Assembly (NCBI GenBank): GCA_024710585.1
Contig: JANJUM010000005.1
Location: 1-50,322 of the forward strand
DNA from: Desulforhopalus sp.
Lineage (GTDB): Bacteria > Desulfobacterota > Desulfobulbia > Desulfobulbales > Desulfocapsaceae
Reading direction: 5' to 3'
Length of the DNA: 50,322 nt
A model generated the notes under the pieces. That model was not told where the DNA came from and ran no database searches. It was given only the letters and a program-made list of their open reading frames with translations. Below, one piece after another: positions 2,513-30,600 of this stretch. Made by a program: the position numbers and the translations under genes. How positions within the stretch are numbered: the first letter of the stretch is position 1; every line of letters starts with the position of its first letter.

Positions 2513-3877
2513 ATGGGCCAGTCTGTCCCCCTGGGCCGGCAGCCGGCCCCCTGGCGCTCGGGACCATGGGTGGGCATCGTCGTCGCGCTCCTCTTTCTGT
2601 TGCTCGCCCTGCGCCAGCACCTCTTCGTCGACAGCCATGCCGTCAACGTCATGTTCTGGGACCAGTGGGATTTTTACCAGCCCCTCTTCGATGGTGGCGG
2701 CCTCTGGGACATGTTCTCCCGCCAGCACGGACCGCACCGCCAGGGACTGGGGATGCTGCTCACCGCTCTTCTCGCCTGGCTGAGCGACTGGAACTCGCGC
2801 TGGGACGCCTTCGGGGTCAGCTTTGTGCTTATCGCCGCCGCCCTGGCAGGCCTGGCGCTGACCCGGCGCTGTGGCATGCGGGGGTTCGGCCTGGTCGTCG
2901 TTCCCTTGCTGTTTTTCAACCCCCGCCAGTACGAGAGCTTCGTGGCGGCGGCCAACATCTCCCATGGGGCGATGCCGCTGCTCCTGCTCATGATCCTTTG
3001 TCTGGTCTGGTTCGTGGAGAACCGGCTCCTGCGCCACCTGCTGCTCGGCCTGTGCACCTTTCTGCTCATTTTCACCGGCTTCGGCCTCTTCGCCGGCCTG
3101 GTGGTGCCGGCAGTCCTCGCCATGGAGCTGGCGCGGCGCCTGCGTAAAGGCATGGAGGGCGTCCTGCCGTTATGGCTGGCCCTGGCGGCCATAGCCTGCA
3201 GCTGGCTGCTCTTTTTCCACGGGTACCGCTTCGACCCGGCGGTGCAGGGCTTCACCTTTCCCCATCCGCGACCTGGCGAGTACCTGCTGTTCATGGCCTC
3301 GATGCTCAACAACTTCTTCGGCATCACGAACCATGGCGCCGGCAGCCTTGTTGTCGGCATGGCGCTGCTGCTCTTCCTCGCCCTGATCGCCTTCATCCAT
3401 GGACGACAGCTGTGGCGCCATGGCCTGGAGGGGCAGGGGCGCAGCGCCACCCTGGTGGTCCTGGCCCTCTTCGCCCTGCTCTTCTGCTGCCAGACGGCGG
3501 TCGGCCGGGTGGTTCTTGGCTGGAAGGCGGCTTCCTCCACCTCCCGCTATGTGCCGCTGCTGGTGCCCGGCGCCCTGGCCATGGCGCTGCACCTCGCCGG
3601 CCTTGGCGCACGCTGGCGGCCGCGCCAGCTCGTCGCGGTGTTCGCCCTCGTCGTGGCGGTCGGCACCACCCGGCTGCACCGGGCCGATATCAGCTTTATC
3701 GACCACTATCGCTCCGGGCGCCTCGCCTGGAAGGCCGCCTATCTCGCCACCGGCGACATGGGCAAGGCCGGCGAGTTGACCGGTTTCCTCATCTACCCGG
3801 CGGTAATGCTCGACGAGCGGCTCGACTTCCTGCGCGGCAAGCGGCTCAACCTCTTCAACCCCGACGGCCTCCCGTAA
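2513..3877 (+). CDS. Polytopic membrane protein of unknown function
   Basis: 454 residues with roughly ten hydrophobic segments, the first at about 20-35 and the last at about 372-385, with basic loops between them. I do not recognise a named family. The large loop after the first membrane segment holds an acidic motif, D50-Q-W-D53, followed by aromatic residues. GT-C fold glycosyltransferases carry catalytic acidic pairs in the first outer loop, so a lipid-linked sugar transferase is possible but unproven. The start lies two bases after the stop of the extended outer-membrane frame, suggesting translational coupling. The last 100 residues are hydrophilic and probably extracytoplasmic or a C-terminal domain. 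Confidence 0.75.
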   Translation: MGQSVPLGRQPAPWRSGPWVGIVVALLFLLLALRQHLFVDSHAVNVMFWDQWDFYQPLFDGGGLWDMFSRQHGPHRQGLGMLLTALLAWLSDWNSRWDAFGVSFVLIAAALAGLALTRRCGMRGFGLVVVPLLFFNPRQYESFVAAANISHGAMPLLLLMILCLVWFVENRLLRHLLLGLCTFLLIFTGFGLFAGLVVPAVLAMELARRLRKGMEGVLPLWLALAAIACSWLLFFHGYRFDPAVQGFTFPHPRPGEYLLFMASMLNNFFGITNHGAGSLVVGMALLLFLALIAFIHGRQLWRHGLEGQGRSATLVVLALFALLFCCQTAVGRVVLGWKAASSTSRYVPLLVPGALAMALHLAGLGARWRPRQLVAVFALVVAVGTTRLHRADISFIDHYRSGRLAWKAAYLATGDMGKAGELTGFLIYPAVMLDERLDFLRGKRLNLFNPDGLP

Positions 3878-3913
3878 AGGGACACCGCCTGCCCACTGCA
3901 CTTTCCGTTGCCC

Positions 3914-4837
3914 ATGACTCTTCGCGATCTCTTCCTGGCTCTTCTCGTCGTCCTCGTCTGGGGGGCCAACTTCACCGTCATCCGTATCGGCCTGGACGGT
4001 GTGCCGCCCCTGCTGCTCGCCAGCCTGCGCTTCGTCTTCGCCCTTTTGCCGGCGATCTTCTTCGTCAAGCGGCCCGGCATCCCCTTCGTCTCCTGGTTCG
4101 GCTACGGTCTGTTCGTCGGCTTCGGGCAGTTCGGCTGCCTCTTCACCGCCATGCACCTCGGCATGCCGGCCGGCGTGGCCTCGGTGGTGCTGCAGTCCCA
4201 GGCCTTCTTCACCATGGCCTTCGCCGCAGTGCTCCTTGGCGAGCGGGTCACGGCGAGGCAGGTGTTGGGCCTGCTGCTTTCCGCAGCAGGCCTGTGGCTG
4301 GTCGGAGGCGGTGGCAGTGCATCGACCATCCCCGTGTTCGCCCTCCTGCTCACCCTGGCCGCCGCCTCCTTCTGGGGCATGTCGAACATCGTCGTGCGCC
4401 GTGCCGGGGCGACCGCCGCTTCCCGCGGCGAAAAGCTCGACATCCTCAGCCTGGTGGTGTGGTCGTCCCTGGCGCCGCCGCTGCCGCTCTTTCTCTGTTC
4501 GCTGCTCCTCGAAGGCCCGCAGCGGGTGGTGGCGGCGGTGACCCATATCAGCCCGGCGTCCCTGCTGGCCATCCTCTATCTGGCCTATGGCGCCACCCTC
4601 TTCGGCTACGGCATGTGGAGCCGCCTGCTCAGCCGATACCCCGCCAACCGGGTCGCGCCCTTGTCGCTGCTGGTGCCGGTGGCCGGGTTGATCACCGCCA
4701 GCCTGGCCCTCGACGAGGTCCTCAGCGGCCGGCAGTGGATGGGCTGCCTGCTGGTGGTCGCCGGCCTGCTGGCGGCGACTGTGCAGGTGGGGGCACGAGG
4801 CCTGTTGACACCGGGGCAAAAACCTGCCAAGAAGTAG
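3914..4837 (+). CDS. eamA: EamA-type drug/metabolite exporter
   Basis: 307 residues with ten predicted membrane helices in two EamA repeats, a normal length for the drug/metabolite transporter family. The order V-W-G-A-N-F, P-P-L-L-L-A-S-L-R-F, G-M-P-A-G-V-A-S-V-V-L-Q-S-Q-A-F-F and R-V-A-P-L-S-L-L-V-P-V is very close to Escherichia coli EamA (YdeD), an exporter of O-acetylserine and cysteine pathway metabolites. Substrate here is inferred from that resemblance. I chose the ATG at 3914; a TTG at 3908 is also in frame, and neither has a clear Shine-Dalgarno. It follows the membrane-protein gene by 36 bases and may share its transcript. Confidence 0.87.
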   Translation: MTLRDLFLALLVVLVWGANFTVIRIGLDGVPPLLLASLRFVFALLPAIFFVKRPGIPFVSWFGYGLFVGFGQFGCLFTAMHLGMPAGVASVVLQSQAFFTMAFAAVLLGERVTARQVLGLLLSAAGLWLVGGGGSASTIPVFALLLTLAAASFWGMSNIVVRRAGATAASRGEKLDILSLVVWSSLAPPLPLFLCSLLLEGPQRVVAAVTHISPASLLAILYLAYGATLFGYGMWSRLLSRYPANRVAPLSLLVPVAGLITASLALDEVLSGRQWMGCLLVVAGLLAATVQVGARGLLTPGQKPAKK

Positions 4838-20282: not shown

Positions 20283-20622
20283 GCTCGCAGACTCCGGGCA
20301 GGCAGGAGGGGGCGTGGGCAAAGGGAATCGATGCAGAACTCTCAGGATTTGGGCCGCGGAAGCGGGCGCGGTGTCGCAGGGATATCAACTCTGGTGGATG
20401 AGTTGATAACTATTATTCGCGTTGTCGTGGCTTGATTTTTCTGTGCAAAAGACCCATTTTTTACTACGTTGTGATACAAGCAGTTGCCGGTCGCGAAATT
20501 CACCCTGCACGTGTGAAGAGAGAGGCCGGAAGAGTGGCGGTGATACCGCCGGAAAAAGCGCTCGGGGCAGTCCGAGGCTTGGTAAAGGTGCAACAGCAGT
20601 GAGCTGCAGAGGAGCAGGTGCC
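20283..20622 (+). other. Leader region of metF with possible stem-loops
   Basis: No gene is convincing here. The first half is A/T-rich near 20390-20475. Toward metF three stems are visible: GGCGGT/ACCGCC (20536-20550), CTCGG/CCGAG (20561-20576) and GCAG/CTGC (20596-20607). I looked for cobalamin, SAM, SAH and THF riboswitch motifs and found none that match. A structured leader is possible. Confidence 0.4.
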
Positions 20623-22128
20623 GTGAGTCACAATTTCAATGACGATATCTCCACCCCCGAGAAATTCGTGGTCACCCTGGAACTCGTTCCCGGCCGGGAG
20701 ATCCTCGGCGGAGCCATCGAGACCATCAAGAAGATCTCCAAGGAGGCCTATGACGACGGTCGCATAACCGCCGTGTCGATCACCGACAACCCCGGCGGCA
20801 ACCCGGCGCTCAGCCCCGACGCCATCGGCCGCGAGATTCTCGATTACGGCATGGACGTCATCGTTCACTTCACCTGCCGCGACGCCAACCGCATGGGCAT
20901 GGAGAGCCGCGCCCTGCAGTTGGCGCGCATGGGCATGCGCAACATCCTTGCCCTCACCGGCGACTATTCCGGAAAGGGCTTCGGCGGCCGTGGCACCCCG
21001 GTGTTCGATTTCGACTCGGTGATCCTCACCACCATGCTCTCCGACCTCAACCGACGCCTGATCAGCAGCGGTTCCTCGGAGGTTTTCGTCACCGGCTGCG
21101 CGGTGTCGCCTTTCAAGTACACCGAGGCCGAGACGTGGATCCAGTACCGCAAGCTGCAGCGCAAGATCGAGGCCGGCGCCTCTTTTGCCATCACCCAGTT
21201 GGGCTACGATATCGACAAGTTCGAGGAACTGCTGCGCTTCAATCGCGACAAGGAGGTCAAAGTGCCGATGCTTGCCTCGCTCTACCTGCTCAACAAGGGG
21301 GCGGCGACGGTCATGCATAGCGGCAAGATCCCTGGGGTGCATGTCGCAAAGCAGCTTTACGAGCGTATCCTCGCCGACTACGCCGTGCCCGGGGAAGGGC
21401 CGAAACGCGCCATCGAGCGAACCGCCCGCCTCGGGGCGGTGCTCAAGGGCATCGGCTACAACGGTATCCATATCGCCGGCATACATAAGAACTTCGATAC
21501 GGTTGCCGCCATTCTCGACCGCATGGAGGAGATCGGCCATAACTGGGAAGAGTATCGCGAGGAATTCCGAGAAGAAAGCAACGGCCGCTTCTATATCTAC
21601 AAGGAAGCCGCGGTCGAGGAGGTCGCCGACGGCGGCCGCTCTGAGATCAAGCTCAAGTTCGGCGACGAGGTCCATTACCTCTTCCTGCGCACCGCCCACG
21701 ACCTCTTCTTCGACAAGGAGGCCTCGCTGGCCCCCATGTACCGCAAGATCTCCAGCGCCTTCGAAAAGAAGAACGCCTCGTGGATGCTGAAGATGTTCCT
21801 CGAAGATCCCTTCAAGAAGCTGATGCTCTCCTGCAAGAGCTGCGGCGACTGCGGCATCCAGCATGTCGGCTTCCTCTGTCCGGAATCGGGCTGCCCGAAG
21901 CATACCCGTAACGGTGCCTGCGGCGGCAGTCGTGACGGTTACTGCGAGGTCAACCAGGACAAGCTCTGCGTCTGGGTTCGTGCCTATTACCGCATGAAGC
22001 GCCATAACGAGACCGAGCAGCTCACCGCCTCCTTCGTTCCACCCCGCTCCTGGGAACTCCAGGACACCTCGTCGTGGATCAATTTCCACCTCGACCGCGA
22101 TCACCAAAAGGTGGCAAAGGCTACCTGA
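20623..22128 (+). CDS. metF: Methylenetetrahydrofolate reductase fused to MTHFR_C domain
   Basis: 501 residues. Residues about 10-300 are the MetF TIM barrel that reduces methylene-THF to methyl-THF using a flavin (T-D-N-P-G-G-N-P near 48, L-A-L-T-G-D-Y-S-G-K-G near 108). Residues about 390-490 are the Cys-rich MTHFR_C domain, with C-K-S-C-G-D-C, L-C-P-E-S-G-C-P-K and N-G-A-C-G-G, as in MetV-like partners of acetogens and sulfate reducers. These Cys residues probably hold iron-sulfur or zinc centres that feed electrons. A GTG start at 20623 with GGAGCAG upstream was chosen; no ATG lies before the core domain. It serves one-carbon and Wood-Ljungdahl type flow. Confidence 0.93.
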   Translation: MSHNFNDDISTPEKFVVTLELVPGREILGGAIETIKKISKEAYDDGRITAVSITDNPGGNPALSPDAIGREILDYGMDVIVHFTCRDANRMGMESRALQLARMGMRNILALTGDYSGKGFGGRGTPVFDFDSVILTTMLSDLNRRLISSGSSEVFVTGCAVSPFKYTEAETWIQYRKLQRKIEAGASFAITQLGYDIDKFEELLRFNRDKEVKVPMLASLYLLNKGAATVMHSGKIPGVHVAKQLYERILADYAVPGEGPKRAIERTARLGAVLKGIGYNGIHIAGIHKNFDTVAAILDRMEEIGHNWEEYREEFREESNGRFYIYKEAAVEEVADGGRSEIKLKFGDEVHYLFLRTAHDLFFDKEASLAPMYRKISSAFEKKNASWMLKMFLEDPFKKLMLSCKSCGDCGIQHVGFLCPESGCPKHTRNGACGGSRDGYCEVNQDKLCVWVRAYYRMKRHNETEQLTASFVPPRSWELQDTSSWINFHLDRDHQKVAKAT

Positions 22129-22155
22129 GGCCCTGACCCGTCCCTGAAAACAGCG

Positions 22156-22195
22156 CGGCGGCAGACGTGAACCACGTCTGCCGCCGGTTTATTTT
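22156..22195 (+). terminator. metF terminator
   Basis: The perfect 14-bp stem CGGCGGCAGACGTG/CACGTCTGCCGCCG has a three-base loop and is followed by GTTTATTTT. It begins 28 bases after the metF stop. It is a strong intrinsic terminator and may also work for the converging minus-strand genes. Confidence 0.88.
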
Positions 22196-22222
22196 GGGCA
22201 TTCCGTCTGGGATGAGCCCTAC

Positions 22223-22444
22223 TTACGGCACAAGGCGGGGGGAGAGATGCTGGGTATGCTGATGGCGGCGCCTGAGGGTCTCGCCAAGGGCGATGAGCAG
22301 GTCGGCCACGGCCAGCATGAGGCGGTCGCGGTTCTTTTGGTGGTGCTGGGCGGCGAAGAGTGCGAGTAAATGGCGGCGTTCGCTCTCTTCGAGCATCTGC
22401 CGTCGTCGTTCCTTCAGTTCCATTTCCAAAAGATAGGGATTCAT
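22223..22444 (-). CDS. Small basic helical protein, unknown
   Basis: 73 residues, rich in Arg, Glu and His. The first half (about 5-30) is a charged amphipathic helix, and a more hydrophobic helix follows at about 42-55 (L-M-L-A-V-A-D-L-L-I-A-L-G). The tail is His-rich. I do not recognise a family. The ATG at 22444 follows GAGGAGACACC, a good ribosome site, which is the best evidence that it is real. It lies 68 bases downstream of the MocR-type regulator on the same strand and may be co-transcribed with it. Its codon usage matches the neighbours. Confidence 0.55.
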   Translation of the reverse strand: MNPYLLEMELKERRRQMLEESERRHLLALFAAQHHQKNRDRLMLAVADLLIALGETLRRRHQHTQHLSPRLVP

Positions 22445-22512
22445 GGTGTCTCCTCGGTACACTCCCTTATGGTGATGCCGGATTTTTCCGGCGTTGACGG
22501 GCTGCCGCATGT

Positions 22513-24054
22513 CTACTGATAACTGCCGAGACCGCTCAACCCCGATTCCCCGGGGGGGCGGCTGATGAACTCCTCAATGGCGCTGGCCAGCAGTTCGATG
22601 CCCTCCTTGATCTCCGCCTCGTTCGACCAGGCGTATCCGACCCGGCAGCAGTTGACGAAGCGTTGGTCGATATCGAATAGCGGCCCGGGCAGAAAGGACA
22701 CCCCTTTGTCGATGGCGAAGAGGAAGAGGGCGACGCTGGAATAGCCGCGCGGCAGTTCCACCAGCAGCGAGAATCCGCCCTCGGGTCGGGTCCAGCTGGT
22801 GCCCTCGGGCATATAGCGCTGCAGGGCGCGCAGCATGGCGTCGCGGCGCACCCGGTACATGGCGGCCATCCTGCGGTTGTGCTCGTCGTAGCGGCCGGAC
22901 TGGAGAATGGTCAGGGCCATGCCTTGGATGAGCGTCGGGCAGGAATGGTCGTTGAGCCGCTTGAGCTGGGCGAGCTGCTGCACGTGGCGCGCCGAGCTGA
23001 CGATCCAGCCAAAGCGCATGCCGGTCATGACCGCTTTTGAAAATGAGTTGACGATCACCGCCTGCTCCGCCGGCAGGTCCTTTAACAGGCTTGGCGGCAC
23101 CTCGTCCCAGCACAGGTCGCGGAAGAGCTCGTCGGCGATGATGGTGCTGCCGGTCTTCTTCGCCCACTCCACCAGCATGCTGCGCCGTTCGGCGCCAAGG
23201 TGGGTGCCCATGGGGTTATGGGCATAGGGGCAGAGGTAGAGCAGCGATGGCCCGATGCCGGCAAGCTGGTGCAGCTGCTCGGGCAGCGGCCCGCTGCTGT
23301 CTCTGGTGATGGTCTCCACCCAGTGGCCCATGGCGCCGAAGGTATCGGTGATGCCTCGAAAACATGGCGTCTCGCAGATGACACGCTTGCCGAACTCGCG
23401 GTTCTCCTGGGAGAGCAGGGTCACCCCCTGCAGCGAGCCATTGGTGATGAGGACCTGGTCGGCACTCACCGCCAGGCCCTGGGCCGCGTAGCGCCGGGCG
23501 ATCTCCGCCCGCAGGTCGTAGCGTCCAAGGGGATCGGTGGTCTCGAGAAGGCTCATGCCATCGCGCGCCATGGTCTCCCGGGTGACCTCGGCGAGGAAGT
23601 CGGCGGGCAACAGGCTGGGGTCGGGCACACCCTTGGTGAGATGGATGATGCCTGGTTTGTCGGCGAGGATCATGATATCGCGCAGGGCCGTGCCCACCCC
23701 CATGCGCAGCCGCCGGGCGGCGAACTCCAGGGGGCTGTGGTCGCCGCCCCGGGCTGGCGAGTGGGTTCGCTCGAGCGTCTCGCGTCCGTCCACGCCACGC
23801 GGCTCCTCCTCCTCCGGCTTGCGGATGAAAGTGCCCCGCCCGACCTGGCAGCTGGTCTGCCCGGCGTCGCTGAGGTCCTGGAGGGCGCGGCGCACGGTGG
23901 CCTGGGTGACGCCGATTTCCCGGGCCAGCCAGGAGACGGGGGGCAGCCGGTCGCCCGGGTTGAGCTCGCCCTTGCGGATCGCTTCCTGGATGAGGTCGCG
24001 GATCTGGATATAGAGGGGGATGTCGGATTCTTTGTCGATCGTGTAGGCAACCAT
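22513..24054 (-). CDS. MocR/PdxR-type regulator (GntR HTH + aminotransferase domain)
   Basis: 513 residues. Residues 8-77 are a GntR winged helix (D-I-P-L-Y-I-Q-I-R near the start, G-D-R-L-P-P-V-S-W-L-A and V-G-R-G-T-F). After a linker (about 80-110), residues 115-500 are a fold-type I aminotransferase-like domain that binds PLP. The Schiff-base Lys is in N-S-F-S-K-A-V, with N-P-M-G in place of N-P-T-G and D-E-L-F before it. MocR proteins sense PLP or an amino acid and usually control pyridoxal or amino-acid genes; the target here is unknown. The only divergent neighbour is non-coding DNA, so it may regulate itself. The ATG at 24054 follows GAGG; a tandem repeat lies 20 bases upstream. Confidence 0.9.
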   Translation of the reverse strand: MVAYTIDKESDIPLYIQIRDLIQEAIRKGELNPGDRLPPVSWLAREIGVTQATVRRALQDLSDAGQTSCQVGRGTFIRKPEEEEPRGVDGRETLERTHSPARGGDHSPLEFAARRLRMGVGTALRDIMILADKPGIIHLTKGVPDPSLLPADFLAEVTRETMARDGMSLLETTDPLGRYDLRAEIARRYAAQGLAVSADQVLITNGSLQGVTLLSQENREFGKRVICETPCFRGITDTFGAMGHWVETITRDSSGPLPEQLHQLAGIGPSLLYLCPYAHNPMGTHLGAERRSMLVEWAKKTGSTIIADELFRDLCWDEVPPSLLKDLPAEQAVIVNSFSKAVMTGMRFGWIVSSARHVQQLAQLKRLNDHSCPTLIQGMALTILQSGRYDEHNRRMAAMYRVRRDAMLRALQRYMPEGTSWTRPEGGFSLLVELPRGYSSVALFLFAIDKGVSFLPGPLFDIDQRFVNCCRVGYAWSNEAEIKEGIELLASAIEEFISRPPGESGLSGLGSYQ

Positions 24055-24073
24055 CGGCGCAACCTCTTCTAAA

Positions 24074-24095
24074 TTGATACAGTATTGATACAGTA
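24074..24095 (-). promoter_or_regulatory. Tandem operator-like repeat upstream of MocR gene
   Basis: Two perfect, adjacent copies of TACTGTATCAA (read on the minus strand) occupy 24074-24084 and 24085-24095. MocR-family regulators are known to bind direct repeats near promoters, so this is a likely autoregulatory site. No clear -35/-10 pair could be assigned next to it. Its spacing of exactly one helical turn supports a head-to-tail dimer. Confidence 0.6.
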
Positions 24096-24446
24096 CCTAT
24101 TTGGAGGCGTCAAGGGAAATAGTCACTCGCCAGGCCGAAGCAGCTGTTCGCCTTTGGCTCCTTGTGCGACGTCAAGGGTTGCACACGGCGGAAGAATGGG
24201 CTGCGATTTCCAGCATGCCGACTACGCCCTGCAGCTGCAGCTGAAAAAGGCGGTGGGGGCAGGGGCAGAGGCCGTCAGGACAAGGGAGAGGCGCGATGAG
24301 AGGGGAAGGCGCCCTGGGTTGCAGGGGGCGCGGTCGACGCGAAAGAGGGTGAGGGAAACGGGAACGCCAGGCGAAGCAGCGGCGACCATGCCCAGAGGGA
24401 TGTCCCTAGCGGCTGGCAACGGGGCCCTGAGGCCTGGGCTTGCCGA
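24096..24446. other. Non-coding gap between MocR and rlmD genes
   Basis: This stretch has no convincing gene. A plus-strand open frame crosses it only because it contains the 58-bp rlmD copy and then runs antisense into rlmD. Two short similar pieces, CGTCAAGGG near 24108 and 24171, are also seen. It holds the 3' flank of rlmD but no strong terminator that I can see. Confidence 0.5.
24199..24256 (+). repeat. Perfect 58-bp inverted copy of an rlmD segment
   Basis: This sequence is identical over 58 bases to the reverse complement of 25511-25568, which lies inside rlmD. Read on the plus strand it encodes the same peptide, G-C-D-F-Q-H-A-D-Y-A, which follows the iron-sulfur cysteines of RlmD. 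Identity ends abruptly on both sides. The copies face each other 1.25 kb apart and could recombine to invert the DNA between them, give antisense RNA, or reflect a misassembly. No start site or ribosome site precedes this copy. Confidence 0.9.
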
Positions 24447-25796
24447 CTACGACGCTTTCTCGAGGAGCGCAACCGTCTCGATATGGTGGGTCTGCGGGAA
24501 CATGTCCACCGGCTGCAGGCGACGGATGGCAAAGCCGGCAGCCACCAGCTGCTGCAGGTCGCGGCACAGGGTGGCCGGGTCGCAGGAGATATAGACGAGG
24601 CGGCCCGCAGCCAGCTGCGCCAGGCGCGGGGCGAGCTCCGGCGCCCCTTGGCGGGGCGGGTCGATGACGATGCAGTCGAAGCGTCGCCCCTCGGCCACGA
24701 GCCGGTCGCAGGCCTGGTGGATGGGGCTCTGCTCGAAGCGGGTCTCCGACAGGCCGGCACGCATGGCGTTGGCGCCGGCGCTGCGGATGGCGGACGCCTG
24801 GCCCTCGATGCCATGGACCCGGGCGCCCCTCATGGCCAGGGGCAGGGAGAAATTGCCCATGCCGCAGTAGAGGTCGAGCAGGCTCATGCCCTGCCCAGGC
24901 TGGCAGAAATCGAGAACCGTGTCGATGAGGGTCAGGTTCTGGCGGAGGTTGACCTGGCAGAAGCCGCCCACCTCCCAGCCGAGCGACAGGCCCTCGGGGA
25001 GTGTCGCCGAAGGGGCGTAGCTCTGGACGAGGGTCCTGCCGTCTCCCTGGCCAGCGGCGGATGCTGCCGCGCCATAGGGGCCCTGCAGGGCGAAGCCGCT
25101 GCCGTGCAGGAAGACGGATTCGATCTCGGCGAAGGCCCCGCATAAGGCGCGGGCTGCGCTGATATCGGCCGGGCGCGGCTTGCGGCGGAGCCGCAGGAGG
25201 ACGACCGCCTGGCCGCGGTCGGGGTTGTCGAGGATCTCCACCTCCTCGGCCAGCTGGCACAGGGTCCGCGCCGCGGGCAGGGTGGCCAGGGCGGAGAGCA
25301 CCCGGTTGTGCATTTCGCCGCCGAGCAGGCAGGCGGCCACCGGCACCACCTCATGGGACTGGAAACGGGTGAAGCCGAGGCGACCCCGGTCGTCGACACG
25401 CAGGCGCAGCCGCTGCCGGTAATGCAGTTCCAGCGGGGCGCCGAGAGGGTCGGCAAGTGCCTCGGCAGCCGCGGCCAGGGTCGGGCCGCCGCGGAGGAGC
25501 AGCTCGGCCACCACCGCCTTTTTCAGCTGCAGCTGCAGGGCGTAGTCGGCATGCTGGAAATCGCAGCCGCCGCACTGTCCGGCATAGGGGCAGGGTGGCT
25601 GCCGCCGCTGCCTGTGGGGGCTGAGAACCTCGTCCAGCCTGGCGAGGAGATGATTCTTCTTCTTTTCCAGCGGGGTGACCAGCACAGCCTCACCAGGCAG
25701 GACGTGGCGCACCAGCACCACCTGCCCGGAAAGGGCGTGGCCGAGACCGAAGCCGCCGTTGACAATTTTCGAGATGAGAATGGTTTCCGGTTGCAT
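24447..25796 (-). CDS. rlmD: 23S rRNA (uracil-C5)-methyltransferase, RlmD/RumA family
   Basis: 449 residues. An N-terminal TRAM domain (about 1-58, with L-P-G-E-A-V) is followed by the [4Fe-4S] cysteines (C-P-Y-A-G-Q-C-G-G-C near 69-78, plus a later Cys). The SAM-binding Rossmann domain has L-D-L-Y-C-G-M-G-N-F, D-P-P-R-Q-G-A and the catalytic S-C-D-P-A-T-L. It methylates a uridine of 23S rRNA (U1939 in E. coli numbering) or, less likely, tRNA U54. The ATG at 25796 was taken. It diverges from tamA with a very short gap. Bases 25511-25568 are duplicated in inverted form in the downstream gap. Confidence 0.92.
   Translation of the reverse strand: MQPETILISKIVNGGFGLGHALSGQVVLVRHVLPGEAVLVTPLEKKKNHLLARLDEVLSPHRQRRQPPCPYAGQCGGCDFQHADYALQLQLKKAVVAELLLRGGPTLAAAAEALADPLGAPLELHYRQRLRLRVDDRGRLGFTRFQSHEVVPVAACLLGGEMHNRVLSALATLPAARTLCQLAEEVEILDNPDRGQAVVLLRLRRKPRPADISAARALCGAFAEIESVFLHGSGFALQGPYGAAASAAGQGDGRTLVQSYAPSATLPEGLSLGWEVGGFCQVNLRQNLTLIDTVLDFCQPGQGMSLLDLYCGMGNFSLPLAMRGARVHGIEGQASAIRSAGANAMRAGLSETRFEQSPIHQACDRLVAEGRRFDCIVIDPPRQGAPELAPRLAQLAAGRLVYISCDPATLCRDLQQLVAAGFAIRRLQPVDMFPQTHHIETVALLEKAS
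25511..25568 (-). repeat. rlmD copy of the 58-bp inverted repeat
   Basis: Internal segment of rlmD beginning at the last Cys pair of the iron-sulfur motif. It is identical to the reverse complement of 24199-24256. It forms the left arm of a 1.37-kb inverted-repeat unit that spans most of the gene. Confidence 0.9.
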
Positions 25797-25852
25797 GGAA
25801 GTGAGGGGAACGGGTAGAAAAAAGCCAAAGACTCTTCTGAGATGGTTTTTTT

Positions 25853-27691
25853 ATGGTTTTTCAGCTCTTGCAGGTAGGCCCGGCATCGCCGGCAGGTTTT
25901 CCCCCCTGCCATCCCGCCCGGCTTCTACATAAACGACCCGGCCTCTTCGCTTCAATGCTTTTCTGCGCCGTTCTCCTCGCCGGCATATGCGCGGGGAGTT
26001 GTCGCGCCGCGGCTGGGGTGCCTCTCGAGGTGCAGGTGAGCGGTATCGACGAGCCGTTGCTCGGCAACGTCCTGGCGCGCCTCGGCATCCTCCTTCACAA
26101 GGACAAGGAGCGCCTTCACGTCGGGGCCATGCGCCGCCTCCACCAGGAAGCGGAGGACGATATCCGCTCCGCCCTGGCCCCTTTCGGCTACTATCACCCG
26201 CGCGTCACCGGCAGCCTCATCTCGCGGGGCGGGGTGTGGCACGCGCAGTACGCGGTAGATCCCGGCCCGCCGGTGCGCGTGGCCGAGGTGCGCCTGCGGC
26301 TGCACGGCGAGGGGCGCGACAATGCCCCCCTCCAGGAAGCCCTGGACGCGTTTCCCCTCAAAAAGGGCGATATCCTCGACCAGCAGGTCTACGAGCAGAC
26401 CAAGAAGAAGCTGGTCAATCTCGCCTTCGGTGAAGGCTTCCTCGACGCCACCTTCAGCGAACGCAGCCTGCGCATCGATCTCGATGCCAACAGCGCCGCG
26501 GTCATTCTCGCCCTCGATACCGGGCGCCGGTATCTCTTCGGCTCCACCGCCAGCCGGCAGGAAATCCTCGACGCCGACCTTCTCGCCCGCTACCTCCCCT
26601 ACCGCGAGGGGGACCCGTACCGGCCGGCGCGACTCTTCGAACTGCAGTCGATCCTCTACCAGACCGGCTACTTCAGCCGCGTGGCGGTGCGCGGCCAGCT
26701 CGAACGGGCCAGCGACTTCGCCATTCCGGTGGACATCGACCTCGAAGCGCCGGCTCAGCGCAACAAGTACAGTTTGGGTATCGGCTATGCCACCGACACC
26801 GGCGTGCGTTTCAAGGCCGACTGGGACAACCGGCTCTACAACAGCGCCGGCCATCAGGTCAATTCCTCCCTGCAGGTCGGCCAACTGGAGAACATCCTCG
26901 CCTTTCACTACCGCATCCCCTGGGATGACGACCCGCGCCATCAGTCGCTCACCGGCAGTCTCGCCTACCAGGACAAGCAGTGGAAGAGCACCACCACCCA
27001 GCTCTTCACCGCCGCCGTCACCAGGGACTATTCCGGGCCACGCTACCGGCTCGGCGGCGGACTCGAGCTGCGCGACGAGATCTACGACGTCGGCGAGACC
27101 AGCGGCGAATCGCTGCTTCTTCTGCCTTCGGTCAACGTCGGCGCGGTCTTCGCCGATGATCTGCTCAACACCCGCAACGGGCTGCAGCTCTCCGTGGGGG
27201 CCATCGGCGGGGTGGAGGGGGTGGTCTCTGACGTCACATTCGTTCAGGTCACCGCCAACGGCAAGGCCATCGTCTCGCCCATTCCCGAGTGGCGCCTCAT
27301 CGGCCGCGGCTCCATCGGCGCCATCGCCGTCGACTCCATCGATTCCCTGCCGCCGTCGCTGCGCTTCTACACCGGCGGCGACACCTCGCTGCGCGGCTAC
27401 GGCTACAAGTCCATCGGCACCAGGGATGGCTCGGGGGCCAATATCGGCGGCCGCTACCTGGTGGTGGGCAGCGTCGAGGCGGAACGCACCGTCTACAAGC
27501 AGTTCAGCCTTGCCGCCTTCTGGGATGTGGGTACCGCCGCCGACGATCTCGATCTCAACTTTTACCAGGGCGTTGGTGGCGGGGTCCGCTTCCGCCTGCC
27601 ATTCGGGCAGATCCGGCTCGATGTCGCCTCGGCGATCAGCGAAAGCGGCAACCCGCTGCGCTTTCATCTCACCGTGGGGGGGGATTTTTGA
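25853..27691 (+). CDS. tamA: TamA, Omp85-family outer-membrane assembly protein
   Basis: 612 residues, close to the family length. After a signal region, residues about 55-310 hold POTRA domains, and about 310-612 are a 16-strand Omp85 barrel. The loop-6 R-G-Y motif (S-L-R-G-Y-G-Y) and the terminal aromatic Phe are visible; BamA/TamA use these to lock the barrel and enter the membrane. It works with TamB to insert or move lipids and proteins at the outer membrane. The start is uncertain: ATG 25853 gives a 34-residue extension before the hydrophobic core, while ATG 25955 gives a short but typical signal. tamB overlaps by TTGA. Confidence 0.9.
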   Translation: MVFQLLQVGPASPAGFPPCHPARLLHKRPGLFASMLFCAVLLAGICAGSCRAAAGVPLEVQVSGIDEPLLGNVLARLGILLHKDKERLHVGAMRRLHQEAEDDIRSALAPFGYYHPRVTGSLISRGGVWHAQYAVDPGPPVRVAEVRLRLHGEGRDNAPLQEALDAFPLKKGDILDQQVYEQTKKKLVNLAFGEGFLDATFSERSLRIDLDANSAAVILALDTGRRYLFGSTASRQEILDADLLARYLPYREGDPYRPARLFELQSILYQTGYFSRVAVRGQLERASDFAIPVDIDLEAPAQRNKYSLGIGYATDTGVRFKADWDNRLYNSAGHQVNSSLQVGQLENILAFHYRIPWDDDPRHQSLTGSLAYQDKQWKSTTTQLFTAAVTRDYSGPRYRLGGGLELRDEIYDVGETSGESLLLLPSVNVGAVFADDLLNTRNGLQLSVGAIGGVEGVVSDVTFVQVTANGKAIVSPIPEWRLIGRGSIGAIAVDSIDSLPPSLRFYTGGDTSLRGYGYKSIGTRDGSGANIGGRYLVVGSVEAERTVYKQFSLAAFWDVGTAADDLDLNFYQGVGGGVRFRLPFGQIRLDVASAISESGNPLRFHLTVGGDF

Positions 27692-30600
27692 AACGCTGGC
27701 TGTGGCGTATGGTCCTCCTCCTGCTGCTGGTTGCGGCAGGCGGCGGCTGGTTCGTGCTGGGCAGCGACTCCGGCCTGAAACTGCTGCGTTCCCTGGCCGA
27801 CGGGCGTGGCCCGTTGACCATCGGCGCCGCCGAGGGCCGGCTGCTGGGCCGTTTCACCCTCGAGCGGCTGGGGCTCGCCCTGCCCGGAGTAGAGGTGAAG
27901 ATCAGACGGCTGACCTGGCATTGGTCGCCACTGGAACTCGTCGAGGGCCGCTTTCACCTCGCCGCCCTGGAACTCGAGGGGGTGGTGGTACGCTTCGCCG
28001 ATGGAGAAGAGGAGGCGGCCGAAGCAAAGGACGCGGCAGCCCCAACCGCTCCAGCCCCCAGCGCGGCGCCGACGCTGCCCGCGACCCTCTTGCCCCTGCC
28101 CCTGCTCCTCGACCGGGTGGCGATAGACGGCCTGCGTCTCGAGGATGGCGAGGGCGGTGAACTCCTCGTCATCGATACCTTCCTCCTCGCCCTGCAGGGC
28201 GGTGTCGACAACCTGCTTATCGATACCCTGGCACTGCAGGGCCCCGATATCGGGCTCTCCGTGCATGGCAACGTCGACTTCACCCGCAGCTGGCATGTCG
28301 ACCTGCTCGGGTCGTGGAACCTCATCGGCTATGGCTTCAACAGGCTCCACGGCACCCTCTCCGCCAGCGGGCCGCTCAACTCGCCCCAGGCCGCGCTGGC
28401 GGTGGTCACGCCGGTCGATCTGCGCGTCGAGGGGCAGGTTGCCAATCTCCTGCGCAGCCCCTCGTGGACCGCCTCCCTTGTCGGCAACAACGTCGACCTG
28501 GAGCAGTTCATCGACAGCTGCCCGAAGATCATCGTCAAGACTATCCACGGCCGCCTCGCCGGCGACGTCAATGGCTACGGCGGGCCGGTGCGGGCGGAGG
28601 TCGAATGGGGCCTTGCCGACAACATGGTCCTCGACACCACCCTGCGCGCCGGCCTGCTCGGCATCGACTTCGTCACCCTGCATCTTGCCCGTGGCGAGGC
28701 GAGCATCGACTCCAGCAACGCCTCCATCGACTGGAAGCGGCTCTTTGACTGGCGCGGCAGCTTCACCGTCAAGAACTTCGACCCGGCCATGTTCCTCCCC
28801 GAACTGCCGGGCAGCGTCAGCGGGGAGATAGAGAGCGTCGGCCTGGTTCGTGACGACCTCGGCGTCAACGCCGACTTCACCCTGCAACTGACCGGCCAGC
28901 TCCACGGGCGGCCAATGTCGGTCGCGGGTGGCCTGGCCCTTGACGAAAACGGCATATCCAGCAAGGGGCTGTCCCTGCGCAGCGGCGAGGTGGCGGGCAG
29001 CGCCGAGGTGGTCGCCGCCAGCTTCTCCTGGGCCGAGGAACTCGACTACATGTTCTCCCTGCGCCTCGAGGAGTTCGACCCTTCGGGGGTCTTCCCCCAG
29101 TTTCCCGGCTCGCTGCACGGCCTCATCGACGGCCGGGGCCGGCTCGGTGAGGGAGGTGGCCAGGGCTCTTTCAGCATCGCCGGGCTCTCCGGCACGCTGC
29201 GCGGCAACGCCATTTCCGGTGGGGGCGAGATCGCTTTGGAAGGCGAGCGCCTCACCACCACTGGCCTCGTCCTGAACAGCGGACCGTCTCGGCTGGCAGT
29301 GCAGGGCAAGGCCGGCGAGGACTTCGCCCTCGACATCGCCTTCGACTCCCCCGATCTTGGCACCTTGCTGCCGGAGAGCGGCGGCGAGCTGCACCTCCGC
29401 GGCCAGCTGCGCGGCTCGCCGCGGGAACCGACTCTGGCGCTCGACCTCGACGGCAGCGCCCTGCGGCACGGCGCCATCAGCGTGGCCCGGCTCGAGGGCA
29501 GGTTGACCTCGCGTTTCGCCGGCGAGGGCCAAGTGCACGGCGCCCTCGCCGCCAAGGGGCTGCTGGTGGAAGAGACTCGCCTTGACAGCCTGCGCCTTGA
29601 CTATGCCGGAAGTTTCAGCCAGTTGGGCCTCGATCTCGACCTGAGCGGCACCTTCGGGACGGTCGCCGGTCGGGTCGAGATCGGTCGCGACGAGGTCTGG
29701 AAGGGGCGGGTCGCCGACCTGAAGCTCTCCTCGGCGACCTATGGGCAGTGGCGCCAGGGGCCAGCGGCCGTCTTCGCCCTCGGCGAAGAGAAGTTCGACC
29801 TCGAGCAGCTCTGCCTCGCCGAGGGCGCGGAGCGCTTCTGCCTTGGCGGCGGGGCGGACTGGGCGGGAGAGGTAACCTGGCGGCTTGCCGCCGAAAGCGA
29901 GGGCCTTTCCCTTGAGCGATTGCAGCGCTGGGGGCTGTCGGCCCAGGCGCTTTCCGGCAAGCTCGCCCTCGCCCTGAAGGCCGGCGGTCGCGAGGAGCGC
30001 CTCACCGCCCTCGAGGCGCGCCTCTCCCTGCCGCAGCTGGAGGTCGATCTCGGCCTTGATGACGAAGAACTCGCCGGCCCCCTGCTTCGCGACATCACGG
30101 TCTCCCTGGGATTCTCGGCGGCGGCCCTGCGCGGCCATGGCGAAGCCACCATGAAGAGCGGCAGCCGCATCCTTCTCGATGCCGCCCTGAACGGCGAGGA
30201 GATCAGTCCGGCAACCTTCATGTCCCTGCCCCTTTCCGGCAGGCTGCAATTGGCCGACTTCGACCTGGCCATGCTCGCCGCCTTTACCGGCTATGGCGTC
30301 GACCCGGTGGGCCAGGCCAGCGGCGACTTCACCCTTGGCGGCAGCCTGGGCCGCCCGCAGCTGGTCGGGGAGGGGCGCGTCGACCGTGGCGGCATCAATC
30401 TCCCCTACCAGGGCATTTCCCTGGAGCAGCTCAAAGTCAAGATCGAGGCCGAGGACGAGGGTGTGCATCTCAGCGGCAGTACGGTCTCCGGGGCCGGGGA
30501 GGCGCGGGTCGACGGGCGGCTGCGCTATGGAGCGCAGGGCATCGAGGGGCTGCTGCATCTCAGCGGCAAGAATTTTCTTCTCGTCAACCTGCCGGAGTAT

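What the first reader, a model, noticed from the sequence alone, without database searches (positions are those of the whole stretch)
24199..25568. Perfect 58-bp inverted copy of rlmD sequence in its own downstream gap
Bases 24199-24256 equal the reverse complement of 25511-25568 without a mismatch, and identity stops sharply at both ends. The segment codes for the part of RlmD right after the iron-sulfur cysteines. Fifty-eight identical bases cannot be chance. Inversion between the arms would separate the iron-sulfur part of the gene from its catalytic part and could switch rRNA methylation on or off. Other readings are an antisense RNA, a recent copying event during replication slippage or strand switching, or a misassembled read.
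Basis: seen in the sequence. Interest (0 to 1): 0.78.

Follow-up and report, generated by a model that had tools for sequence, protein, structure and literature searches.

The report
One-off inverted copy of rlmD fragment
A 58-base piece of a ribosome-modifying gene sits backwards in the spacer just after the gene, most likely left by a single recent copying mistake; nothing seen here suggests that it acts as a switch.

Summary
In detail: window 24199-24256 is the exact reverse complement of 25511-25568 inside rlmD. Twenty simulated windows gave at most 18 nt. In 493,163 bases sampled from the same genome (about 12%) there is no other exact inverted repeat of 19 nt or more at 60 nt to 20 kb spacing. 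Of 110 rlmD loci searched, only the window's own has an inverted near-exact rlmD copy in its flanks. Five relatives with a comparable rlmD-MocR gap have 138-192 bp there, against 392 bp here, and no copy.

Best reading: one recent templated insertion. A polymerase switched to the opposite strand about 1.25 kb away, copied 58 nt and returned. Probably functionless.

The switch idea is weak: no serine recombinase match in the 95.8%-complete draft, and none of five tyrosine-recombinase matches on this contig. An artefact is unlikely but only reads can exclude it. Antisense control is possible but nothing positive points to it.

Curiosity: an ATG abuts the copy in RlmD's frame, so a flip would give M + RlmD 77-449 on the other strand. 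Interest is low.

The parts
24199..24256 (+). 58-nt inverted copy (rlmD codons 77-95 plus 1 nt, sense on the + strand) in the rlmD-MocR gap
   Evidence: exact match to reverse complement of 25511-25568; absent in five relatives with a comparable gap
25511..25568 (-). source segment inside rlmD (gene nt 229-286, GCDFQHADYALQLQLKKAV)
24447..25796 (-). rlmD, 23S rRNA (uracil1939-C5)-methyltransferase, 449 aa, open frame intact
   Evidence: TIGR00479 above cut-off, PF05958
24055..24446 (.). rlmD-MocR intergenic gap, 392 bp; 138-192 bp in five relatives
22513..24054 (-). MocR-type regulator (GntR + aminotransferase class I/II)
   Evidence: PF00392, PF00155
24080..24113 (-). conserved promoter/operator-like block of the MocR gene (tandem TGATACAGTA-like units, GTCAA); the copy begins 86 bp beyond it
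   Evidence: conserved in 6 of 6 aligned gaps; promoter reading is by eye, the consensus scan found none
24196..24198 (+). ATG abutting the copy, in the RlmD frame
   Evidence: the ORF it opens (24196-24594) lacks coding-like GC by codon position in its gap part and has no Pfam match at E<=0.01

Best explanation
A single, recent, templated inverted insertion. While the chromosome was replicated or a break repaired, the growing strand in the rlmD-MocR gap moved to the opposite strand of rlmD about 1.25 kb away, copied 58 nt, and returned to its own template. This left a 58-nt reverse-complement patch in non-coding DNA, with rlmD intact. It is probably neutral. Shown: exactness, position, absence in five distant relatives, rarity in the sampled genome. 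Inferred: the template-switch steps, the recency and the lack of function.
For: Perfect 58/58 identity with sharp ends; the source is plainly rlmD, whose coding sequence continues on both sides. Five relatives with a comparable gap have 138-192 bp there against 392 bp, without the copy. In this genome the gap matches only itself and rlmD at E<=0.001 (18 of 50 first-look candidates were scored), and plasmid and phage collections gave no match: against a dispersed element. No RVT_1 and no Ku match in the draft: against reverse-transcriptase copying and Ku-type end joining. Alone in 493,163 sampled bases plus the window. Precedent: template switches that make single inverted repeats, copied length up to 128 nt, in great apes (PMC7954356, passages); template-switch mutation in E. 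coli (PMC7202029, abstract and introduction as shown in the outline).
Against: The precedents seen concern short-range events (median copied length 12 nt in apes; nascent-strand switching at quasipalindromes in E. coli), whereas here the source lies 1,254 bp away. No close relative was found (best RlmD identity 59%), so the pre-event sequence and junction microhomology cannot be reconstructed. The copy accounts for only 58 of the 200 or more extra bases of the gap.
Confidence: 0.72

Rival explanations
1. Assembly or library artefact: a chimeric fragment or wrong graph path put an rlmD piece into the gap.
For: The genome is a 276-contig draft. Inverted joins of nearby segments are the typical chimera of multiple displacement amplification (PMC1855051, passages: 406 of 475 chimeras inverted, 337 of them under 10 kb apart). 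How this genome was sequenced is not known here.
Against: Those chimeras join two segments once; here sequence continues on both sides of the copy to MocR and to rlmD, the gene order of relatives, so two joins would be needed. No second case in 493,163 bases of the genome. No exact overlap beyond the 58 nt at either end to drive a false path.
Confidence: 0.13
2. Cis-acting antisense or self-pairing: an rlmD read-through transcript, or a + strand RNA from the gap, pairs with rlmD codons 77-95 and lowers RlmD through RNase III or blocked translation.
For: The arms pair over all 58 positions in the MFE fold of a 1,470-nt minus-strand stretch covering both, and their duplex is worth -130.9 kcal/mol. 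The scan of 23950-24600 found no terminator-like site that would stop read-through before the copy.
Against: Full pairing follows from any perfect inverted repeat. No sigma-70-type promoter match in the gap, no Rfam match, no such arrangement at 109 other rlmD loci. The copy lies upstream of the MocR promoter-like block, so not in the MocR leader if that block is the promoter (by eye).
Confidence: 0.09
3. Invertible switch: recombination between the arms flips 24257-25510 and breaks rlmD.
For: 58 bp of perfect identity in inverted orientation could serve RecA recombination (recalled). The simulated flip leaves codons 1-95 followed by 112 other codons on one strand, and M + RlmD 77-449 from an abutting ATG on the other.
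Against: No PF00239 match in the draft and no PF00589 match on this contig. Invertons are described with 10-40 nt repeats and invertases often encoded nearby (PMC11892184, passages). The source arm is ordinary rlmD coding sequence. Not seen in relatives.
Confidence: 0.05

Closest known systems
Four-point template-switch mutation / templated inverted insertion
   Same: A short, exact reverse-complement copy of a nearby sequence with sharp ends, making one new inverted repeat
   Different: Source 1,254 bp away; 58 nt is long against the ape median of 12 nt but within their maximum of 128 nt; ancestral state not available
Invertons (phase-variable segments)
   Same: Two inverted repeats flanking a segment that includes part of a gene
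   Different: Repeat longer than the 10-40 nt quoted; no recombinase match of the two families searched on the contig; no evidence of flipping
Multiple-displacement-amplification inverted chimeras
   Same: Inverted joining of segments under 10 kb apart
   Different: Two joins instead of one, and a lone case in the sampled genome

Membership tests
Templated inverted insertion by template switch | Insert is an exact reverse complement of a nearby sequence | tested here: met
   58/58 bases, 1,254 bp apart
Templated inverted insertion by template switch | Derived state: absent from the ancestor | tested here: inconclusive
   Absent in five relatives with a comparable gap, but they are distant (RlmD 54-59% identical) and the middle of the gap does not align
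Templated inverted insertion by template switch | Switch points fit a pre-event sequence (microhomology) | not testable with these tools
   No close strain available; at most a GG is shared with the right flank, by eye
Inverton | Site-specific recombinase acting on the repeats | tested here: inconclusive
   PF00239: 0 in the draft; PF00589: 5, none on contig C221. A recombinase elsewhere in the genome is not excluded
Inverton | Both orientations found in a population | not testable with these tools
   No reads; the assembly holds one orientation and one rlmD
Retroelement-made copy (DGR, group II intron, retron) | Reverse transcriptase in the genome | tested here: not met
   PF00078: 0 matches in the 95.8%-complete draft
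Dispersed repeat (MITE, REP, IS) | Several copies in the genome | tested here: not met
   At E<=0.001 the gap matches only itself and rlmD in G000 (18 of 50 candidates scored)
Known structured RNA | Rfam covariance match | tested here: not met
   0 matches at E<=1 in 22000-28000
MDA chimera artefact | Repeated inverted joins across the assembly | tested here: not met
   0 further exact inverted repeats >=19 nt at 60 nt-20 kb spacing in 40 stretches, 493,163 bases; only closer hairpin or palindrome types in L118, L130, L144, L154

The most novel reading that the evidence does not exclude
The duplicated segment lets RecA flip 24257-25510, toggling between full-length RlmD and, on the other strand, an N-terminally cut RlmD (M + residues 77-449) started at the ATG that abuts the copy: homology-driven phase variation of an rRNA methyltransferase built from a fragment of its own gene.
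Probability: 0.03. Interest if true: 0.7.

Novelty: new member of a known kind. Interest (0 to 1): 0.14.

Why it matters
If the reading is right, it is one cleanly preserved example of a templated inverted insertion spanning more than 1 kb in a bacterial draft genome, useful for asking how far template switches reach. It says little about rRNA methylation: an E. coli rlmD knock-out strain was grown and assayed, and its loss of reporter protein yield was mild, not above twofold (PMC7056703, passages).

Tried and rejected
Mobile element: no second copy of the gap in the genome at E<=0.001 (18 of 50 first-look candidates scored), no match in plasmids or phages; a 28-base piece of the copy has no match in viral contigs. 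Known RNA: none. Small ORF 24196-24594: the gap part has flat GC by codon position (0.67/0.72/0.73 against 0.75/0.47/0.87 in rlmD) and no Pfam match at E<=0.01. Patchwork origin of the rest of the gap: the longest exact matches of its two flanks elsewhere in the window and in the first 20 G000 stretches are 13 nt, the best blastn rows have E 0.29. Other rlmD loci: one search gave rows for 5 of 110 loci: the window's own L006, and L012 (36 nt, 83%, E 0.001), L031, L077 and L080. None of these four is an inverted near-exact rlmD copy, though L077 and L080 each have one weak inverted row (40 nt at 80%, 60 nt at 75%). In L031 the 'gene' span was stretched over its duplicated 3' end, so its hits are partly intergenic. 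The 109 other loci fall into 97 groups sharing no 150-mer, since some genomes were fetched twice. One search's loose scan of 150 sequences (1,468,686 bases) listed three inverted pairs at 100-8000 nt spacing: the window (98%, 62 nt), L031 (82%, 180 nt) and L062 (75%, 113 nt); the last two were not followed. L001-L006 (three cuts of the window, three overlapping L007 or L010) and L156-L160 (fetched later) were not in that scan. Paper searches showed no bacterial example of a templated inverted insertion at kilobase distance in their listed titles and abstract openings; that is no proof that none is in print.

Full report
OBSERVATION. Bases 24199-24256 are the exact reverse complement of 25511-25568, 58 of 58, with no exact extension at either end; allowing one mismatch the pair is 62 nt. 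The exact arms are 1,254 nt apart. In 20 Markov-generated windows the longest exact spaced inverted repeat was 15-18 nt. The other five pairs reported in the window are 25-31 nt at 77-88%. The feature is real in the assembly and not chance.

SETTING. The window is the whole contig C221 (50,322 bases) of a 4.15-Mb, 276-contig draft genome, 95.8% complete, 2.0% contaminated. The best named RlmD relatives are mostly Desulfobulbaceae/Desulfocapsa-type MAGs, the first being GWB2_56_26 at 55%; the placement is inferred from these. Gene order: MTHFR (20422-22128 +), MocR-type regulator (22513-24054 -), a 392-bp gap, rlmD (24447-25796 -), tamA-like (25853-27691 +). The copied piece is rlmD nt 229-286, codons 77-95 plus one base.

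RELATIVES. Of 93 family genomes (own included), 74 gave an RlmD match at E<=1e-60; loci were returned for the best 30, own included. Another 80 named loci came, a capped list. In these 110 loci (L006-L115), only the window's own, L006, has an inverted near-exact copy of rlmD DNA in its flanks. The other 109 fall into 97 groups that share no 150-mer; many have only 1.5 kb of flank. An exact scan of 116 sequences (995,479 bases, the window and its overlapping loci included) found no other non-overlapping inverted repeat of 24 nt or more. Five relatives (G001, G003, G004, G006, G012) with rlmD followed by a MocR start have gaps of 138-192 bp, against 392 bp here, without the copy (their lengths run from the last aligned RlmD codon and are slightly too long). 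The first ~60 bp of the gap, with tandem TGATACAGTA-like units and GTCAA, are conserved in 6 of 6. This looks like the promoter/operator of the MocR gene (by eye; the consensus scan found no promoter). The copy begins 86 bp beyond it, in sequence that does not align.

IS IT PART OF A SYSTEM? In 40 stretches of the same genome (493,163 bases, 12%) there is no other exact inverted repeat of 19 nt or more with spacing from 60 nt to 20 kb; closer, hairpin or palindrome types occur in four stretches. The gap has no other match in the genome at E<=0.001 than itself and rlmD (18 of 50 candidates scored). The draft shows no Ku, no serine recombinase and no reverse transcriptase; these searches rang in 1, 10 and 3 of 14 control genomes. 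Five tyrosine-recombinase matches exist, none on C221. This speaks against a repeat family, a programmed inverton, retro-copying and Ku-type end joining, within the limits of a draft; other recombinase and transposase families were not searched.

MECHANISM. The simplest account is a one-off template switch: leave the gap, copy 58 nt from the opposite strand of rlmD, return. Template switches that create single inverted repeats are described in apes, with copied lengths up to 128 nt and a median of 12 nt (PMC7954356, passages). Template-switch mutation is studied in E. coli (PMC7202029, abstract and introduction as shown in the outline). Work on rRNA hairpins shows further cases, two of its figure examples being bacterial (PMC8794818, passages). 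The distance here is larger than in those short-range cases. Junction microhomology cannot be tested because no close strain was found. Perfect identity suggests recency; gene conversion between the arms could also keep it and was not tested.

RIVALS. An artefact would need two false joins and would be alone in the sampled genome; amplification chimeras are mostly single inverted joins (PMC1855051, passages). Only reads can settle it. Antisense control: the arms pair fully in the folded read-through stretch, as any perfect inverted repeat would, and no terminator-like site stands in the way; but there is no promoter match, RNA family or conservation signal. Switch: a simulated flip gives a 207-aa ORF (codons 1-95, then 112 codons of other sequence) and, on the other strand, M + RlmD 77-449 (374 aa), because an ATG directly precedes the copy in frame. 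By hand estimate an abutting start codon would be met by chance in a few percent of insertions or fewer; it is the core of the novel case but carries little weight.

VERDICT. Real, rare and recent-looking, but most likely an ordinary mutational scar. Interest 0.14.

Noticed in passing
L031 (G101) 2770-4168: Downstream of rlmD a PIN-domain / Phd-YefM pair lies between the gene and a second, partly divergent copy of the rlmD 3' end (52 nt identical; residues 390-447 matched), as if the pair had entered by recombination at the rlmD 3' end.
   Followed up: partly
L005 (G001) 1286-1493: The MocR gene next to rlmD seems reduced to its last ~56 codons joined to its first ~14: an internal deletion in this relative, or a misassembly.
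   Followed up: no
window 24080-24113: Tandem TGATACAGTA-like units plus GTCAA conserved in 6 of 6 rlmD-MocR gaps: likely operator/promoter of the MocR-type regulator.
   Followed up: partly
window 24196-24594 (+): ATG directly abutting the copy opens a frame that carries RlmD residues 77-95; the gap part does not look coding.
   Followed up: yes
window 24257-24446: This part of the gap is strongly G-rich on the + strand (88 G, 46 C, GC skew 0.31) and may account for much of the extra gap length; origin unknown.
   Followed up: no
L123 4683-4911: 78-nt exact direct repeat 151 nt apart: two tRNA-Asp (gtc) genes in tandem, followed by tRNA-Val. Ordinary.
   Followed up: yes
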